Below, in pieces: positions 3,001 through 39,017 of a DNA stretch of 64,000 nucleotides (position 1 is its first letter; every line of letters starts with the position of its first letter). The notes beneath the pieces were generated by a model, which was given only the letters and a program-made list of their open reading frames with translations, was not told the origin of the DNA and did no database searches. Source of the stretch: Flavipsychrobacter sp. (lineage in GTDB: Bacteria; Bacteroidota; Bacteroidia; Chitinophagales; Chitinophagaceae); contig JARLGY010000045.1 in NCBI GenBank assembly GCA_031292525.1, positions 62,001 through 126,000 of the forward strand, in the 5' to 3' direction. A program made the position numbers and the translations under genes.

Positions 3001-3900
3001 AGTCGACGTATTAGTGAATGATGCTGTTGCACCTACACATACACCCGTACTGCCGGTAAAAGCTGCTGTAGTACCTGGCACTACGTTGATGTAATTAGTT
3101 TGTACTATAGTGTCTGTACATCCGGTGCTGCTGCTTACGTATAGCTTTACGGTATAAGATGCGGTAGTAGAAGGATAAGTATGCTGTGGATTTACCTGGT
3201 TTGAAAGGGGACTGCCATCACCAAAGTCCCAGGTATAAGAAAGTGTACCTGCTCCTGAACTGTTATTGATAAATGTGGTTACGGGACTATTGGAACATAG
3301 TGTTGATGGGTTTGCCGCGAATGCCCCAACCGGGTTAGCTACAACGGTAATAAAAGCGCTTTTGGTAAAACTTGATGTACAGCCTGCTCCGCTCATCACG
3401 GTAAGGTTTACATTGTATGTACCAGGGGTAGTGTAGGTATATGTGGTTGTACTACCGCTTCCCGATGCACCGTTGCCAAAATTCCATGAATATTGACCTC
3501 CGCCGGGTGCGTTGAGTGTTGATTGATCGGTAAAAGTAACAGGCGAATTAGCACAAACCGTAGTGGGAGATGCAGAAAAATTAACTGTCGGCGGAGCATA
3601 TACGGTAATATCCATGCTGTATGTACTCGATGCAGCGCCGTTATAGGCCGTGAGTATTACATTGTAAGTGCCTGGGGATGAGTAAGTACCTGAAGCATTA
3701 GTTTGCTGGGATGTATTACCATTGCCCAACGTCCAGGTGTACGATGTTGCTCCTGTTGATGTATTGGTATATGATACAGTAAGCGGCGCACAGCCAGAGG
3801 TTACACTTGCTGTAAAGCCAGCAGTAACCGCTTTAGTTGATAGTGATATACCTGCAAACAGCAACGTAAGCAGTATGTTTTTAAGGTGTATAGGGAACAT
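1..3900 (-). CDS. PKD-repeat secreted surface protein (C-terminus beyond left edge)
   Basis: The frame is open from the ATG at 3900-3898 to the window edge, giving 1300 visible codons. It starts with a hydrophobic signal peptide (MFPIHLKNILLTLLFAGISL). About 14 PKD-type domains of roughly 90 residues follow, each with a variant of W-x-FGDG-x-(T/S) and a later TYTVxLxV strand. Near the edge the repeats give way to a segment with SAGSDTTVC and YYVTGKDINGC, typical of Bacteroidota gliding/adhesion proteins. PKD domains are beta-sandwich spacers in secreted adhesins and hydrolases. No catalytic domain is visible, and a T9SS sorting tail is expected outside the window (inference). The start lies 73 bp downstream of rlmD on the same strand. 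Short open frames on the opposite strand are shadows of the repeats. Confidence 0.9.
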   Translation of the reverse strand, partial: MFPIHLKNILLTLLFAGISLSTKAVTAGFTASVTSGCAPLTVSYTNTSTGATSYTWTLGNGNTSQQTNASGTYSSPGTYNVILTAYNGAASSTYSMDITVYAPPTVNFSASPTTVCANSPVTFTDQSTLNAPGGGQYSWNFGNGASGSGSTTTYTYTTPGTYNVNLTVMSGAGCTSSFTKSAFITVVANPVGAFAANPSTLCSNSPVTTFINNSSGAGTLSYTWDFGDGSPLSNQVNPQHTYPSTTASYTVKLYVSSSTGCTDTIVQTNYINVVPGTTAAFTGSTGVCVGATASFTNTSTPGSTGSSWAFGDGTNGSGATATHIYTVPGTYTVTLTNTNNACSGTVSHTITIYAAPSVAFTSSPLLPCPAPATINFSAPSGAASYSWTFGDGGTSAQQSPVHTYSSNGTYTVELIATSPNGCADSNKVTGYEKIYPLNLSITPSVPGGCVPFPVTFSSSIFYPDPLSGNPIPYPYPAASYSWTFGDGGTGNSATFTHTYQTAGTYTATLTVTTSNGCTITQTTIIHAGTPVTPSFSASPLSACVKVPISFTNTSPVNATTTYTWYFGDGNILTSYNASNPYGSPATYDVTLVSNNNGCTDTLIKPAYITINPPNAKFASTYNCTGRNVSFSNLSIGATSFLWSFGDGTTDPSTTNPVHTFPANGVYNVVLTTHNSTSGCSDSTLSIINISFPQAVISVADTAICRGDTISLTGSLTGGPAGAAKSYNWYLNNTSFIDTTSTFKFTYSTIGQKPVFLVIHDYRGCDDTISRTILVAHPTPLFTGSPLPVCSPFPVSFTDQSTDAPTTYFISQSWDFGDGSTSPGNSSTISHSYNTAGTFTVKLYVTDNVGCSDTLIKTAYASVHKPHANFNVSNITLCQNRLFTFNNLSTGSNLTYSWSFGDGGTSTTQNATYSYAQTGTYTIKLVVTDDLGCQDSMTRVSYVNVVPDPVAAFQLTDSLSICSPLIDTFTNLSTGGITYAWSFGDGNTSAFFNTTNVYTAPGVYNVRLVVTNTYGCTDTAIVPVRLLGYAGILTYSPIAGCVPLTVNFTANVTNVPSFTYDFSDGNTFTTTNNTATHTYTIPGPHVPRLILSNTRCQAYSVGIDTIKADGIVPGFKTSPNPICGADSVYFTDTSTAYYSTISSEVWYFSKNVTSVLSHPAQYYTVGNYSVTLISTSSSGCVDTSIQTVHVFPVPVISAGSDTTVCVSDSAMLKPSGGVSYTWAPANLLSCNACTYPYTSPAIPTTYYVTGKDINGCTNTDSVTVNLKTKATGTAGTGGDLCITGSFQLNAYDAYVNAQYQW

Positions 3901-30264: not shown

Positions 30265-30373
30265 GTGTCACTGCGATGTACGAAGCAGCCGTAAGTTTTC
30301 GAGGGTGTGGCGCCACGCCTTGTATGTTGTGAGCTTGTATTTCGTAAGGTTACTTTGTGCCCCGCAATGACGC
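30265..30373. repeat. 109-bp imperfect palindromic element
   Basis: The left end reads GTGTCACTGCGATGTACGAAG and the reverse complement of the right end reads GCGTCATTGCGGGGCACAAAG. Matching continues inward to a perfect 10-bp palindrome GTGGCGCCAC at 30307-30316. The ends resemble the dispersed GTCATTGCGAGG..ACGAAGC repeats known from many bacterial genomes. Confidence 0.6.
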
Positions 30374-30459
30374 GAGTGTGTGCTAGTACTTCGCGAGTAT
30401 AACCACCCCGGCCTATCGGCCACCCATCCTTGAAGGAAGGAGGGGAACTTGTGAGGGGG

Positions 30460-30498
30460 AAATGCCCGACCAGCAATAAAAAATGAAATCGGGCATTT
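30460..30498. terminator. Hairpin AAATGCCCGA/TCGGGCATTT
   Basis: A perfect 10-bp stem with a 19-nt loop. It may end porin transcription, although it lies 215 bp after the stop. Confidence 0.5.
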
Positions 30499-30572
30499 TA
30501 TATAGTGTAAATGGTTGAAAGGAGCTATGGTAGCAGGTGTTACGTTTTCTGATCTTTTAGGAATGCCTGAAG

Positions 30573-30600
30573 AATGCCCGATGCCGGGCATTTTATTTTG
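30573..30600 (+). terminator. Hairpin AATGCCCG/CGGGCATT with T-run
   Basis: An 8-bp stem with tetraloop ATGC followed by TTTATTTTG. It shares the AATGCCCG word with the hairpin 75 bp upstream. Confidence 0.6.
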
Positions 30601-30608
30601 TCTTAAAG

Positions 30609-30656
30609 TGTGATTTTTTTGATTGATGTGATGGCTGTGAATTATGAGGTTTTGAT
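30609..30656 (+). repeat. 48-bp direct repeat, copy 1
   Basis: Matches 32762-32809 at 40 of 48 positions, with the shared core TGATGGCTGTG. The two copies bracket the T9SS gene. Confidence 0.6.
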
Positions 30657-30913
30657 AGTTTATAAATTGGTTGTAGTGGGCGTTAAGCCTACCCCTGACA
30701 CAGCGCAAGGTAAGACGGATAAGTGCTTATCAGGTAAACAAGATATGCACCGTTCCACGCGGTGGAGTGTTCCACGTTCTTCACCGCCCCTAAAGTGGCC
30801 AAAAAACGAATTTATTTTATATACTTGGCCTGCGCAAACCGATATGGAAATATGTATAGTGCGAACCCTGTATGACGAACTGAGATCATATAACGCCAAG
30901 AGTAATTTTGAGT

Positions 30914-33461: not shown

Positions 33462-34391
33462 TTATTTATGTACTGGATTCTTCCTTTTTATTGATTTGCG
33501 CATTTGTAATATTGCAAGTGTTAAACTGGCACCTATTAGACCGCCAAGAAGTAAAAGATAAACTGTTACATAAAGCGCAAAGTAAAGTGGTAACTTCTTC
33601 TGTATTAAACCTGAAAAGTAATCAACCAACTGCGTTATATAAAAAACAGCAGCAACAACAGTTGCTCCAGCAATCCACATATTTGCTGACTTCAAACTTT
33701 TTTGGATTTCTCCGGTAGATAAATTGCTTTCTAACAGTCTATCGCTTAAGTCTTGCCTCCTTTGGGCTTTATCTAATTCCGACTGTTCCCAATCAATAAA
33801 TTTTTCATAAGACGAAATGCTAATTAGGCTTTTTCCTCTCTCGTTAAACTCAAAACGAACTTCATCTATCTGTTCGATAAATCCAAATGTGTCAAGAAAG
33901 TTAAATACTCTGTGTAAGCTTCTATTGTCAGATATTCTTACCTGCTCATGGACAGGCAAATCTAACAATGTAGATTTTATTATGTATTGTAGGCTTTTGC
34001 TATTGAACTTTAGGTAAGGTGGAAAATTTTGCAGACAATAATTTAAAAGAATATTGTCTTTTACCCTAGTGGGTAAAATTAGATTTTTTATGGTTTCATT
34101 TTTAATATTATTAGCCGCATTAATGCCCGCTGTCGTTAATGCGTAATATATATTAGCTGTTGTGTCGACTGTTGCATACCCCAGGCGCACTTCTTTTAAT
34201 TCAACAAACCCATCACTGAGCAGGTCGTATAAAAGAAGATGTAGGTCGTCTTTAAAAGTCTGATTGTTGAACTCTAAAATAACGCTTGATAAAAAAGAAA
34301 ATAAATCCGCTATGTTATAACCTTCTTTAGGACTAATTGGGTAGAGTAGCAGAAACCTTAAAATGCACTGCTTTTGCTCATCTTTAGTCAT
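33462..34391 (-). CDS. Hypothetical protein: two winged-helix-like domains plus two membrane segments
   Basis: A 309-residue protein of unknown function. Residues 1-95 look like a winged helix (LLYDLLSDGFVELKE, wing at YYALTTAGINAAN). Residues 105-195 look like a second one (LHRVFNFLDTFGFIEQIDE, then RFEFNERGKSLI). A charged helix (200-235) leads to two hydrophobic segments at about 238-258 and 268-296, with a basic tail. The domain reading is by eye. Base composition is more AT-rich than flanking genes. It is divergent from a gene of the same plan at 34516. Confidence 0.75.
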   Translation of the reverse strand: MTKDEQKQCILRFLLLYPISPKEGYNIADLFSFLSSVILEFNNQTFKDDLHLLLYDLLSDGFVELKEVRLGYATVDTTANIYYALTTAGINAANNIKNETIKNLILPTRVKDNILLNYCLQNFPPYLKFNSKSLQYIIKSTLLDLPVHEQVRISDNRSLHRVFNFLDTFGFIEQIDEVRFEFNERGKSLISISSYEKFIDWEQSELDKAQRRQDLSDRLLESNLSTGEIQKSLKSANMWIAGATVVAAVFYITQLVDYFSGLIQKKLPLYFALYVTVYLLLLGGLIGASLTLAILQMRKSIKRKNPVHK

Positions 34392-34515
34392 AAAATACTT
34401 AATTGTGCAAACGAAAATATAGAAAAAAACATCAACGCGCTATAAGGGGCTCCGTATTACATTTAATTTAGAATATAATCGTAGTATGGTATCTTGGTAA
34501 AAAAATTATAACATC

Positions 34516-35370
34516 ATGAATATTGCACAAAATGAAATATCTCTATTGAATAAACTTTTGCCTTATATATCAGCCAAACAGAAATTTACATTTACAGAGG
34601 TTGCTGAAAAAAATGGTATTGAGTTGCGATTTCCAGATGCCTACGGCTATATGAATCAGTCTATATTAGATGAATTTGAGCCTAATTTGTACAATATACA
34701 AAATATAGATAATTTCCTTATAAATTATGGATATGCAATCAGAGTGGGAGGTTTTCTAGCTGACGAGAATAAAATTTCTGCTATTCTAACATTAACCGAT
34801 ATTGGTGAACAGTTACAAAATGCTGGGAGTTATGAAGCATATATACATCCCTTAACTCAAGAAACAAATCATTTAAAAAGGTTGGATTGGATTCTAGAGT
34901 ATATGTCTGAGTGTGGCACTCACGATTTAAACTTAGAATATATATGGGTAGAAGTTAAAAAGCAATTTAGGACTTTACACATTGAAGGTCGAGAATCGTT
35001 CAGGCAACAGATGTTTGATAAACTTGAAGCAGAAAAATATTTAGTTAGAAATGGAGGAGGGTATCGTATTACATTAAATGGGATCATATTTATTGCTGAT
35101 GGGGGATACCAAAATGCAAAAAAAAATTCTTATGTAAAGGATGAACAAGAAAAAAATTACCGCAACCATACAGAGAGTACATCTGTCCGTCTAAACTTAT
35201 TAACAGCTACTCTGGGGATTGGAACTTTGGCTTTAGCAGTTTCCGAAGGCATGAAAATACATAAGGACGACTACACACATTTCTTTCAATACTTAGGAAG
35301 TGTAGTAGTAATAATTGTGTTAATAATATGGATGATGTTATATAAACGAAAATCAAAGAAAGAAGCTTAA
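34516..35370 (+). CDS. Hypothetical protein: two winged-helix-like domains plus two membrane segments
   Basis: A 284-residue protein of unknown function and the same plan as its divergent neighbour without clear sequence identity. Residues 1-110 end in a wing-like stretch (ISAILTLTDIGEQLQNAG). Residues 118-200 form a second module (FRQQMFDKLEAEKYL, then GGGYRITLNGIIFIADGGYQ), a pattern seen in Bacteroidota accessory proteins. A polar linker precedes membrane segments at about 224-243 and 258-276 and a Lys/Arg-rich tail. No enzymatic motif is visible. The two genes share 124 bp of AT-rich upstream DNA. Confidence 0.75.
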   Translation: MNIAQNEISLLNKLLPYISAKQKFTFTEVAEKNGIELRFPDAYGYMNQSILDEFEPNLYNIQNIDNFLINYGYAIRVGGFLADENKISAILTLTDIGEQLQNAGSYEAYIHPLTQETNHLKRLDWILEYMSECGTHDLNLEYIWVEVKKQFRTLHIEGRESFRQQMFDKLEAEKYLVRNGGGYRITLNGIIFIADGGYQNAKKNSYVKDEQEKNYRNHTESTSVRLNLLTATLGIGTLALAVSEGMKIHKDDYTHFFQYLGSVVVIIVLIIWMMLYKRKSKKEA

Positions 35371-35871
35371 TTGTACGTTGCCAATCAACATTAGACCTCC
35401 GATGTTCCAGATGTTCTGAAAGGCATCTGGAATCGCCAATAAGCTTCCGTTTTGTAAACGGCATTCAAGATATTGAGCTGAATAGCTGTGATGTTGTCTG
35501 GAATTTATTTTCAATTTTTCTTGCCTCTGCTCGGCATAGTCTTATTTTTTACTACGCCATAACCCGGCAGGCAAATCTCAGATTTGCGTTTTTCCGGCCA
35601 TTATAATATAATTCAATCTGCTTTATACCGCCGTGAAACATCTCCGCTCGTGGAACTGTGGATATTATCTTTTGTCCACAATATCCGCTCATTGTACCTT
35701 ACATCCGTTAACGTGAGCATGTAGTCCGATAACATTGAGCTGCAAACAATAAAATTATTTTTACGCCAGCATATTGAGGTAGTTCTTTATAACTGTATCA
35801 GACATTTTTTTCTGATCAAAACGGACATTTTCTCCAAAAACCGCCACTGCAAAGCTTTTCCGTCGAAACAC

Positions 35872-35905
35872 AAAATGTCCAGAGACGGACATTTCTGGAC
35901 ATTTT
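35872..35905. repeat. Inverted repeat AAAATGTCCAG/CTGGACATTTT
   Basis: A perfect 11-bp stem with a 12-nt loop that itself contains CGGACA. Confidence 0.65.
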
Positions 35906-35972
35906 AGGTGTTTTAATTTTTTTGTGTACCATAATCACTTCATAAAAAATCAATAATTTATAGCCGGACAGA

Positions 35973-35986
35973 GTCCGGTACCGGAC
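35973..35986. promoter_or_regulatory. Perfect 14-bp palindrome, possible operator
   Basis: GTCCGGTACCGGAC is flanked by CCGGACAGA on the left and CACAAACCGGACACC on the right, so three near-identical half-sites lie within 40 bp. Operator function is inferred only from the symmetry. Confidence 0.4.
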
Positions 35987-36196
35987 ACAAACCGGACACC
36001 ACCAGACAGTTGAAAATTAATGCATATCAGCCACCAGAAAAGTTTTTAGCGTATTCTAAGTACTATACCTGTCCGGTTTCGTTTATTTTGTCCGCTAGAC
36101 AGGACAGGTAGACAGAAAACCATATCACAATATAAACCCAACTTATATTGGCTGGTCAAAACCGCTGCAACCCTTTTAATTAGCAGTTTTTTGCTG

Positions 36197-36204
36197 TAAA
36201 TTTG
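36197..36204 (+). promoter_or_regulatory. TAnnTTTG promoter box for sucA
   Basis: TAAATTTG, exact consensus, 71 nt before the sucA ATG. Confidence 0.55.
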
Positions 36205-36275
36205 TGCGGTATAAGAAGCTATTGCTTATCTTAAGCGCTGAATAATTTACTACCAAGATATTACCGGTTATAACA

Positions 36276-39017
36276 ATGGAAGATTTCTCATTCGTAATGG
36301 GCCCAACGCCCGCCTTTATTGAATCCCTGTACAACGATTTTGTAAAAGATTCAACAGTAGTGGATCCTGAGTGGAGGATGTTTTTTGAGGGTTTTGATTT
36401 TGCCCTTGCCAAGAATAACGGTAACGGCGCCGGCGATGCTAAAGCGGTAGTTACGGGCAGCCAGCTGACCAAGGAGTTCCAGGTATATACCCTGATAAGG
36501 GCGTACCGCAAGCGTGGCCACCTGGTAGCCACCACCAACCCCATTCGCCACCGTAAGGACCGTAAGGCGCAGCTTGCCCTTACTGATGTAGGCCTGGCAG
36601 ATACCGACTTGAACATGCAATTTGCAGCAGGCAGCTTTATAGGCCTGCCCAATGCCAAGCTGAGCGAGATAGTAGCCAAGCTACAAAAAATATATACCGG
36701 CAATGTAGGTGCAGAGTTTACCTACATAAACGATAGCGACAAGTGCAACTGGGTGAAAGATGCATTTGAAGCGATGATGCTAAAAACACTGACCCTGCCG
36801 CAGAAGACCAGGATACTGGAAAAGCTGAACGAGGGTGTGATATTTGAAAAATTCCTGAGTACAAAATATATAGGCCAAAAGCGTTTTGGACTGGAAGGTG
36901 GCGAAAGTACCATACCGGCGCTGGATACGATAATAAATGAAGCCGGCGATGCAGGTGTGCAGGAAGTGGTAATAGGCATGGCACACCGCGGCCGCCTGAA
37001 CATACTGGCCAATACCCTGAAGAAAACCTACGAACAGATTTTCAGCGAGTTTGAGGGCAATATGCCAACTGATACTACCATGGGCAGCGGTGATGTAAAA
37101 TATCACCTGGGCTTTAACAGCAACATCAACACGCCTAACGGCAAGGTGGTGAATGTGCAGCTGACCCCTAACCCGAGTCACCTGGAAGCCGTGAACCCCG
37201 TGGTGGAAGGTTTTGCACGTGCAAAGGCTGATGCTTTGTACAACAGGGAATACCACAAGGTATTGCCTATACTGATACATGGCGATGCCGCTGTGGCAGG
37301 GCAGGGTATTACTTACGAGCTGCTGCAGATGAGCAAGCTGGCAGGCTACTACACAGGTGGTACTATCCACTTTGTGATCAACAACCAGATAGGTTTTACT
37401 ACCGACTTTGACGACGCACGCAGCGCAGACTATTGTACAAGTATAGCATCGATGGTGCAGGCGCCGGTATTGCACGTAAACGGTGATGATGCCGAGGCTG
37501 TGGTAAATGCATGCTCATTGGCTGTAGCTTACAGGCAGAAGTATAATGAAGATATTTTCATAGACATGGTGTGCTACCGTAAGAACGGGCACAACGAGGG
37601 CGATGAACCAAAGTTTACCCAGCCGCAGTTGTATGCGCTGATAGACAAGCATCCTAATCCGCGCGAAGTATATACCCAATACCTGCTGCAACATGGCGAA
37701 GCCGATGCACAGGAACTGGCCAAGAGCATGGAGACCCGTTTCTGGGCCGACCTGCAACAGCGCCTGGACGAGGTGAAACAAAAGCCCCTGCCTTACGAAT
37801 ACCAGGCTCCTGAGCTGGAATGGCAAAAACTGCGCAAGGCAAAACCTGAAGATTTTGACCAGAGCCCGGATACGTTTATCAGCGAAGCTGATTTTAAAGA
37901 ATTATTTAACGCGCTGATGAAGTGGCCCGAAGGGTTTACTCCGCTGCGTAAGGTGGCCAAGTTGCTGCAAGACAAAATAAAGCTGTTTGAAACAGAAGGC
38001 AAGGCCGACTGGGCAACCGGTGAGCTGCTTGCATACGCCAGCCTGCTGATAGAAAACAACAGTGTGCGCCTGAGTGGTGAGGACGTGAAACGCGGTACCT
38101 TCAGCCATCGCCACGCCGTTATATATGATGAGAACACCAACACCCCGTACAATCGTCTGAGCCAACTGCGCGACAAGCAGGGGATAATGAATATATACAA
38201 TAGCCTGTTGAGTGAGTTTGCAGTAATGGGTTTTGAGTATGGATACGCAATGGCTAATCCTAACAACCTGGTACTGTGGGAAGCTCAATATGGCGATTTC
38301 GCTAATGGTGCGCAAACCATTATAGATCAATATATTAGCAGCGCAGAGCAGAAGTGGACCAACATGAATGGCCTGGTGCTGTTGCTGCCTCATGGTTACG
38401 AAGGTGGTGGTCCGGAACACAGCAGTGCGCGTATGGAACGCTTCCTGCAAATGTGTGCTGAGCTGAACATGGTAGTAACCAATATTACCACATCGGCTAA
38501 CTTCTTCCACGGGCTGCGCAGGCAGCTGGCATGGCAGTTCCGCAAGCCTATGATCAACTTCTCGCCTAAGGCTAACCTGCGCCATGTACGCTCTTACAGT
38601 GCCATGAGTGAGTTTACACAGGGTGGCTTTAAGGAAGTGCTGGACGACCCGATGATCACCGATGCCAAGAAGGTGAAACGTGTATTGCTGTGCAGCGGTA
38701 AAATGTACTTCGACCTGAGCGAAAAACAAATAACCGATAAGATAACCGACACCGCAATAGTGCGCCTGGAACAGATATACCCATTACCAATGAAACAACT
38801 GAACGAGCTGAAAGCCAAGTACGGCAAGGCTGAGTGGTTATGGGTGCAGGAAGAACCGCGCAACATGGGTGCCGCGAGCTTCCTCATCATGAACATGCCT
38901 GAAGACTTTAAGATTGCTTACAAGAGCCGCCCGGCCAGCGCATCTACAGCTACCGGCTTCTCTAAGAAACATACCATAGAGCAAAATGAGCTAGTGAACA
39001 GCGCATTTGCGAAATAG
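36276..39017 (+). CDS. sucA: 2-oxoglutarate dehydrogenase E1 component
   Basis: A 913-residue thiamine-diphosphate enzyme that decarboxylates 2-oxoglutarate in the TCA cycle. Family features are the N-terminal FIESLYNDFVKDSTVVDPEW (peripheral E2-binding), MAHRGRLNILANTLKK, HGDAAVAGQGITYE, the TPP-motif region YRKNGHNEGDEPKFTQP, and LPHGYEGGGPEHSSARMERF in the C-terminal half. Full length. The E2 gene (sucB) usually follows sucA, but here a strong terminator and an unrelated convergent gene follow, so E2 must be encoded elsewhere. Confidence 0.97.
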   Translation: MEDFSFVMGPTPAFIESLYNDFVKDSTVVDPEWRMFFEGFDFALAKNNGNGAGDAKAVVTGSQLTKEFQVYTLIRAYRKRGHLVATTNPIRHRKDRKAQLALTDVGLADTDLNMQFAAGSFIGLPNAKLSEIVAKLQKIYTGNVGAEFTYINDSDKCNWVKDAFEAMMLKTLTLPQKTRILEKLNEGVIFEKFLSTKYIGQKRFGLEGGESTIPALDTIINEAGDAGVQEVVIGMAHRGRLNILANTLKKTYEQIFSEFEGNMPTDTTMGSGDVKYHLGFNSNINTPNGKVVNVQLTPNPSHLEAVNPVVEGFARAKADALYNREYHKVLPILIHGDAAVAGQGITYELLQMSKLAGYYTGGTIHFVINNQIGFTTDFDDARSADYCTSIASMVQAPVLHVNGDDAEAVVNACSLAVAYRQKYNEDIFIDMVCYRKNGHNEGDEPKFTQPQLYALIDKHPNPREVYTQYLLQHGEADAQELAKSMETRFWADLQQRLDEVKQKPLPYEYQAPELEWQKLRKAKPEDFDQSPDTFISEADFKELFNALMKWPEGFTPLRKVAKLLQDKIKLFETEGKADWATGELLAYASLLIENNSVRLSGEDVKRGTFSHRHAVIYDENTNTPYNRLSQLRDKQGIMNIYNSLLSEFAVMGFEYGYAMANPNNLVLWEAQYGDFANGAQTIIDQYISSAEQKWTNMNGLVLLLPHGYEGGGPEHSSARMERFLQMCAELNMVVTNITTSANFFHGLRRQLAWQFRKPMINFSPKANLRHVRSYSAMSEFTQGGFKEVLDDPMITDAKKVKRVLLCSGKMYFDLSEKQITDKITDTAIVRLEQIYPLPMKQLNELKAKYGKAEWLWVQEEPRNMGAASFLIMNMPEDFKIAYKSRPASASTATGFSKKHTIEQNELVNSAFAK

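What the first reader, a model, noticed from the sequence alone, without database searches (positions are those of the whole stretch)
35800..36115. Dense array of GGACA/TGTCC words with palindromes upstream of sucA
About ten copies of GGACA or its complement lie within 300 bp, including a perfect 14-bp palindrome GTCCGGTACCGGAC, a perfect 11-bp inverted repeat AAAATGTCCAG/CTGGACATTTT and several CCGGACA half-sites. They lie in 905 bp without any gene. Such spacing suggests a cluster of binding sites or remnants of a repeat family. The closest downstream promoter is that of sucA; the closest upstream gene is the membrane-tethered winged-helix-like protein at 34516.
Basis: seen in the sequence. 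Interest (0 to 1): 0.5.

Follow-up and report, generated by a model that had tools for sequence, protein, structure and literature searches.

The report
Dispersed composite repeat unit upstream of sucA
The dense run of GGACA words is one copy of a modular, probably once-mobile DNA repeat that occurs at dozens of places between genes in this genus of bacteria, so it is most likely not a special control region of the neighbouring sucA gene.

Summary
The array is real: 10 GGACA/TGTCC words in 300 bp, the most clustered of 512 5-mer pairs in the window. It is not specific to sucA. It is the left part of one copy of a polar composite repeat, [X]n-F, on the minus strand: A (35964-36108), B' (35800-35906), F (35633-35712). 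RAYT-type repeats G and R fill most of the remaining gap.

X modules carry word-bearing hairpins around a core; the word is swapped between subfamilies (A TGTCCGG, B AAAATGTCCGTT, C AATGCCCGAT). The own genome has 53 X hits and 54 F hits. The nearest F is downstream on the same strand for 47 of 53 X hits, upstream or opposite for none, and absent within 1.2 kb for 6. Homology between copies tends to stop at the A start and F end. A was found only in this genus (2 of 117 family genomes). Neighbouring genes have mixed orientation.

Best reading: a new family of non-autonomous REP/BIME-like mobile DNA, possibly moved by a Y1 (HUH) transposase; the enzyme is unproven. No support for a role at sucA; this locus was not found in the one congener held.

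The parts
35964..36108 (-). Module A of the unit: left stem-loop, core, tandem TGTCCGG copies and palindrome TGTCCGGTACCGGAC(A). Unit 5' end is near 36108.
   Evidence: R1 match at C14:97968-98112 = window 35968-36112, 95.4 bits (this copy was in the model); HMM 35973-36108; the further CCGGACA at 35964 is read by eye
35800..35906 (-). Module B': palindrome AAAATGTCC..GGACATTTT, short core, second AAAATGTCC stem
   Evidence: Read by eye against other copies; the B model supports only 35872-35906 (20 bits); fold z -2.7
35633..35712 (-). Module F, 3' end of the unit (..ATATCCACAGTTCCACG..GTTTCAC)
   Evidence: HMM 42 bits; R2 match C14:97631-97729 = window 35631-35729, 66.1 bits (this copy was in the model)
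35615..36101 (-). Whole A-B'-F block, 76% identical to a paralogous unit at C14:4790-5273 beside RAYT-a
35529..35586 (-). Module G: repeat that also flanks RAYT-b in inverted orientation
   Evidence: HMM 54 bits (this copy was among the seeds)
35405..35523 (+). Module R: copy of the 5' flank of RAYT-a, with the TTCCAGATG..CATCTGGAA palindrome
   Evidence: 95% identical to C14:3909-4032; HMM
30458..30593 (+). Module C of a second unit in the window (word AATGCCCGAT)
   Evidence: R1 match C14:92457-92594; HMM 120 bits (this copy was among the C seeds)
30703..30775 (+). Module F of that second unit
   Evidence: HMM 47 bits; R2 54.2 bits (this copy was in the model)
30400..30452 (+). Repeat E beside the second unit
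   Evidence: HMM 36 bits
30266..30367 (-). Repeat D (GAGGCACGAAGCAACC type) beside the second unit
   Evidence: HMM 56 bits

Best explanation
The array is the A and B' part of one copy of a genus-restricted, non-autonomous composite repeat, [X]n-F, about 250-550 bp as a rule. Shown: it is dispersed, polar (F last on the same strand), and copies share homology blocks that tend to end at the A start and F end, so the composite was copied as a unit. Inferred: the word-bearing palindromes fold into hairpins on single-stranded DNA and are the recognition sites of a transposase acting in trans. The most likely kind is a Y1 (HUH) enzyme of the RAYT/IS200 class, which would explain hairpins, no terminal inverted repeat and no visible target duplication. 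Subfamilies with a different word but a related core would reflect a change of the recognised word. The unit upstream of sucA is an old insertion and probably has no dedicated role there.
For: Dispersal: 53 X-type hits and 54 F hits in the own genome, 39 X-type hits in the congener; counts may be low, since 150 of 1380 and 150 of 2328 first-look candidates were scored. Polarity: nearest F downstream and same strand for 47 of 53 X hits, 0 upstream, 0 opposite. Unit ends: of 12 homology blocks over 150 bp among 27 units, 5 start within 25 bp of the A start in both copies, none starts further upstream, and 9 end within 25 bp of the F end in both. Stems masked, a core model from A alone finds 9 of 11 B and 13 of 14 C cores above the 99th percentile of shuffles; reverse complements 1 and 2. 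Single-strand folding z of two intact A copies -4.3 and -3.9, window A -1.9, window B' -2.7. Y1 genes over the Pfam cut-off exist in both genomes, 6 loci; three stand within about 250 bp of an A..F unit and a fourth has an F about 0.5 kb away. RAYT-a, RAYT-b and a G060 gene pass the REP-associated transposase cut-off.
Against: No Y1 gene is flanked on both sides by X or F; RAYT-b is flanked by G and RAYT-a by R. The impression that the RAYT-a flank resembles the core was not confirmed. No clean empty site was found: in two loci the congener lacks A but keeps F. F itself does not fold better than shuffles (z -0.1). Units shared with the congener, 9 of 24 by the rule, show that much of the spread is old. 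F was first recognised in loci fetched for A, so its closeness to A is partly by selection; its strand and side are not. The B' core matches the A core in only 3 of 12 (reverse complements 1 of 12).
Confidence: 0.6

Rival explanations
1. The array is an operator cluster through which a DNA-binding protein regulates sucA.
For: Dense palindromic words within 500 bp upstream of the sucA start; the words are conserved in the family, and protein binding is not excluded.
Against: Similar units stand beside many unrelated genes, with mixed orientation: 5' neighbour 14 opposite and 10 same, 3' neighbour 12 same and 9 opposite, of 24 loci. The A-F axis runs away from sucA. A TAnnTTTG box at 36197-36204, read by eye (motif recalled), would place the sucA promoter between the array and the gene.
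Confidence: 0.07
2. The units are miniature transposons (MITEs) of a DDE transposase.
For: Sharp-ended, non-coding, dispersed blocks.
Against: Ends of 24 left and 22 right borders show no terminal inverted repeat (TGTCCTGTCCGG against GTTCCAC) and, by eye, no duplicated flank; only a G-rich left flank. No autonomous partner was seen in the loci read, and the genome was not searched for DDE transposases.
Confidence: 0.15
3. The units are structured RNA genes or cis-acting RNA elements.
For: Stem-loops in A; recurrent unit.
Against: 0 of 13 consensus pairs show a change on both sides in 20 A copies. In five loci searched, no Rfam family reached its gathering score (two chance-level matches). Mixed gene orientation.
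Confidence: 0.08
4. The units are binding sites of a chromosome-organising protein, kept by selection.
For: Dozens of similar palindromes per genome; 9 of 24 units are shared with the congener.
Against: Partial losses of A at two loci between congeners; several different words; no search for chromosome position bias was made.
Confidence: 0.1

Closest known systems
REP / REPIN with RAYT (REP-associated tyrosine transposase)
   Same: Dispersed intergenic palindromes predicted to form hairpins; Y1 transposase genes present in the genome; RAYT subclass 2.6 of Bacteroidetes is described as flanked by 'atypical secondary structures' without GT[AG]G (PMC6006769, passages)
   Different: Units are longer, polar and composite, not an inverted REP doublet (PMC3116915, passages); no GTAG or CGTC tag; no RAYT found with X or F on both sides
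BIME (bacterial interspersed mosaic element)
   Same: Mosaic of several repeat families in one intergenic gap
   Different: BIMEs have REPs in alternating orientation (PMC2817692, search listing only); here X and F keep one strand and F is last
TIRYT repeats (Y1 genes with long terminal inverted repeats)
   Same: RAYT-b with inverted G copies on both sides resembles a gene flanked by long terminal repeats that recur elsewhere (PMC3733652, passages)
   Different: That applies to module G, not to A, B, C or F
Enterobacterial RU/ERIC-type intergenic repeats
   Same: Non-coding intergenic repeats of 100-170 bp (PMC2759123, search listing only)
   Different: No sequence relation was tested; the composite [X]n-F order is not described in what I saw

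Membership tests
REP/REPIN | GTAG or CGTC tag beside a 20-40 bp palindrome | tested here: not met
   Not present in the A consensus or F consensus, read by eye
REP/REPIN | Two REPs in inverted orientation forming one hairpin | tested here: inconclusive
   A has two separate stem-loops rather than one long hairpin; B' and C not folded as sets
REP/REPIN | Cognate RAYT gene flanked by the same repeat | tested here: not met
   None of the 5 Y1 loci that could be read on both sides has X or F on both sides; the sixth is at a contig end
REP/REPIN | Many intergenic copies per genome | tested here: met
   53 X hits, 54 F hits. Intergenic position judged from ORFs only; 5 of 24 loci have a 109-142 aa ORF overlapping the unit, not assessed
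BIME | Mosaic of different repeat families | tested here: met
   A, B/C, D, E, F, G, R modules mapped together
BIME | Alternating orientation of REPs | tested here: not met
   47 of 53 X hits have the nearest F on the same strand, 0 opposite, 6 none
MITE of a DDE transposon | Terminal inverted repeats | tested here: not met
   Border sequences of 24 left and 22 right ends
MITE of a DDE transposon | Target-site duplication | tested here: inconclusive
   None seen by eye; no clean empty site
Structured RNA | Covarying base pairs | tested here: not met
   0 of 13 pairs with changes on both sides
Structured RNA | Match to a known family | tested here: not met
   5 loci, no match at gathering score
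Operator cluster of sucA | Words specific to the sucA region | tested here: not met
Operator cluster of sucA | Protein binding and effect on transcription | not testable with these tools
   needs gel shift and deletion

The most novel reading that the evidence does not exclude
[X]n-F is a new class of non-autonomous single-strand-type mobile DNA with a constant right end (F) and an exchangeable left end whose recognition word is swapped in concert in both hairpins. Each word would answer to a different transposase or specificity, so the genus would hold a record of serial changes of specificity by one element lineage.
Probability: 0.2. Interest if true: 0.65.

Novelty: new variant of a known kind. 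Interest (0 to 1): 0.4.

Why it matters
Long intergenic gaps in this genus are largely built of such modules; a reader or pipeline would take them for regulatory clusters. The strict polarity and the word swaps around a related core offer a natural data set for asking how transposase and hairpin specificity change together. For sucA itself the result is a warning against inferring an operator from word density.

Tried and rejected
Regulatory cluster of sucA: rejected as the main reading because similar units recur elsewhere. Tandem CCGGACA-N4-CCGGACA as the repeated signal: not enriched against the reversed control. Homology between the A/B/C core and the RAYT-a 5' flank, noted by eye: no match in an HMM scan at that place, dropped. 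Empty-site mapping: 16 flanks of own-genome units were searched in the congener, 7 matches; it gave two loci without A but with F and no clean border. Order A before B or C is frequent, not absolute: partial B matches lie 5' of A in L075, L084 and L088. 'Lone' F: 17 of 54 F hits had no R1 hit within 1.2 kb; I read upstream DNA of 13 and of two more as L009 and L010, all with TGTCC/GGACA or GCCCGA words by eye; two weak hits (C3:123830, C4:215530) were not read. Of the 6 X hits without F, three lie near contig ends (two on C19, one on C39). Rfam, PADLOC, Pfam and NCBIfam gave nothing over threshold for the unit or for the genes at 33462 and 34516. Paper searches and a search for three exact motif strings (0 papers) gave no description of these units; papers may not print such strings.

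Full report
Observation. The finding holds in the sequence. Ten GGACA/TGTCC words lie at 35823-36106 and the cluster exceeds every control tried: 500 dinucleotide shuffles of 34401-36300 (maximum 4) and 2000 relocations of the 68 window hits (maximum 6) against 10 observed; GGACA is the most clustered of 512 5-mer pairs. The 14-bp palindrome is exact and the inverted repeat is 12 bp.

What it is. The palindrome with its flanking bases, CCTGTCCGGTACCGGACAGG, occurs at 21 places in the 4.44-Mb own genome with up to 3 mismatches, and the reversed control at none. Twenty copies align over about 120 bp as module A: TGTCCTGTCCGG, a loop, CCGGACAGG, a core GCTGAAATG..TGTGGTGGCTGATAT, then CTGTCTGG and TGTCCGGTACCGGACAGG. 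A covariance model built from those copies gives 53 hits at E <= 0.001 in the own genome, 24 of them above 80 bits, and 39 in the only congener held, G060. Only 150 of 1380 first-look candidates were scored in the own genome, so the count may be low. In a family sample of 117 genomes only these two have hits at E <= 1e-5. A pattern scan of the genome collection found two stretches, both in one metagenome assembly of a Bacteroidetes bacterium (the tool may leave out records near the own genome).

Subfamilies. The weaker hits are relatives with another word: B (AAAATGTCCGTT..GGACATTTT) and C (AATGCCCGAT..CGGGCATTTT). With the stems removed, a core model made from A alone recognises 9 of 11 B and 13 of 14 C cores above the 99th percentile of shuffles, against 1 and 2 for reverse complements. 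These sets hold copies of both genomes and at least one sequence in both orientations, so they are not independent. A permuted form B', the one in the window, matches weakly: 3 of 12 against 1 of 12 for reverse complements.

Unit and polarity. Another module, F (GGTTTACAGGTT..TGCAAGGTA..GATATGCACCGTTCCACGG..TGTTCCAC), gives 54 hits at E <= 0.01 in the own genome (150 of 2328 candidates scored). For 47 of the 53 X hits the nearest F is downstream on the same strand; it is upstream for 0, opposite for 0, and missing within 1.2 kb for 6. All 24 strong A copies have one. F was recognised in loci fetched for A, so closeness is partly by selection, but side and strand are not. B or C mostly lie between A and F; partial B matches lie 5' of A in L075, L084 and L088. 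Among 27 units, 12 homology blocks exceed 150 bp: 5 start within 25 bp of the A start in both copies, none starts further upstream, 9 end within 25 bp of the F end in both, two run 65 and 130 bp beyond F, and one ends inside the unit. The window unit and the unit at C14:4790-5273 form one of these blocks (496 bp, 76%). The composite is therefore what was copied.

The window gap. From the sucA side the gap reads, on the minus strand, A (36108-35964), B' (35906-35800), F (35712-35633), G (35586-35529), then R on the plus strand (35405-35523). G is the repeat that flanks RAYT-b in inverted orientation, and R is a 95% copy of the 5' flank of RAYT-a. A second unit, C then F, lies at 30458-30775. 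The remaining 167 bp before sucA holds a TAnnTTTG box at 36197-36204, read by eye with a recalled motif.

Context. Around 24 strong units the 5' neighbour is opposite in 14 and same in 10; the 3' neighbour is same in 12 and opposite in 9 (ORFs of at least 100 codons, not curated). This does not fit a promoter or terminator function tied to one gene.

Age and turnover. Nine of 24 units are spanned by an orthologous match with flank in the congener; two more loci have matching flanks but lack A; one has a single flank; twelve had no match among the loci held. One of these twelve, L064, does share its gene neighbour and A in two separate blocks (as L015). At L060 the congener lacks 302 bp with A but keeps most of F; at L059 it lacks about 220 bp with A but keeps C and F. 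No clean empty site was found. The start of sucA was not found in the congener, so this locus could not be compared.

Mechanism. No covariation supports an RNA (0 of 13 pairs) and no Rfam family reached threshold in five loci. Two intact A copies fold as single-stranded DNA better than shuffles (z -4.3, -3.9); the window's A and B' do so less (-1.9, -2.7) and F does not (-0.1). The ends show no inverted repeat. Six Y1 transposase loci over the Pfam cut-off are known in the two genomes. Three have an A..F unit within about 250 bp (RAYT-a, RAYT-b, the IS200-like gene at G060:C1), a fourth has an F about 0.5 kb away (G060:C58), one has none in its flank, one sits at a contig end. RAYT-a, RAYT-b and the C58 gene pass NF047646 and the C1 gene passes NF033573. 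None is flanked by X or F on both sides. I therefore infer, at about 0.4, that a Y1 enzyme acted in trans; that the block is a dispersed copied unit I hold at about 0.9.

Comparison. The nearest known kinds are REP/REPIN and BIME. PMC6006769 (passages) describes RAYT subclass 2.6, mostly of Bacteroidetes, flanked by atypical structures lacking GT[AG]G with copies elsewhere in the genome. By eye RAYT-a carries the motifs given there (NHIH, WQ, YIHNNP); RAYT-b fits only in part. The units here differ in being polar, composite and longer. Searches of the paper library gave no description of them; that library lacks most subscription journals.

Verdict.

Noticed in passing
window 30266-30775: A second composite unit (D, E, C, F) of the same kind in the window.
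   Followed up: partly
L075 (C23:187216-187285) and L081 (C26:45562-45617): In both, F is cut after GTTCC by the same sequence beginning TTTAGATTTGCAAAGAGTC, running to a contig end: possibly an insertion sequence that uses F as its target.
   Followed up: no
L057:579-1929 (C14): RAYT-a is present twice in tandem; the upstream copy is broken, the downstream copy is a 176-codon open frame.
   Followed up: no
L058:1353-2049 (C5): RAYT-b lies between inverted copies of module G; a further G and 3' end of the gene follow at 3068-3123.
   Followed up: partly
window 33462-34391 (-) and 34516-35370 (+): Two divergent low-GC genes for proteins with likely C-terminal membrane segments, no family over threshold in Pfam, NCBIfam or PADLOC.
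   Followed up: partly
L078:1640-2150 (C19): A gene on the opposite strand lies between A and B-F, the only strong unit whose A and F were seen to be separated in this way; it looks SnoaL-like by eye.
   Followed up: no
repeat D, e.g. L082:1381-1491: GAGGCACGAAGCAACC inverted repeats recur next to the units in both genomes.
   Followed up: no
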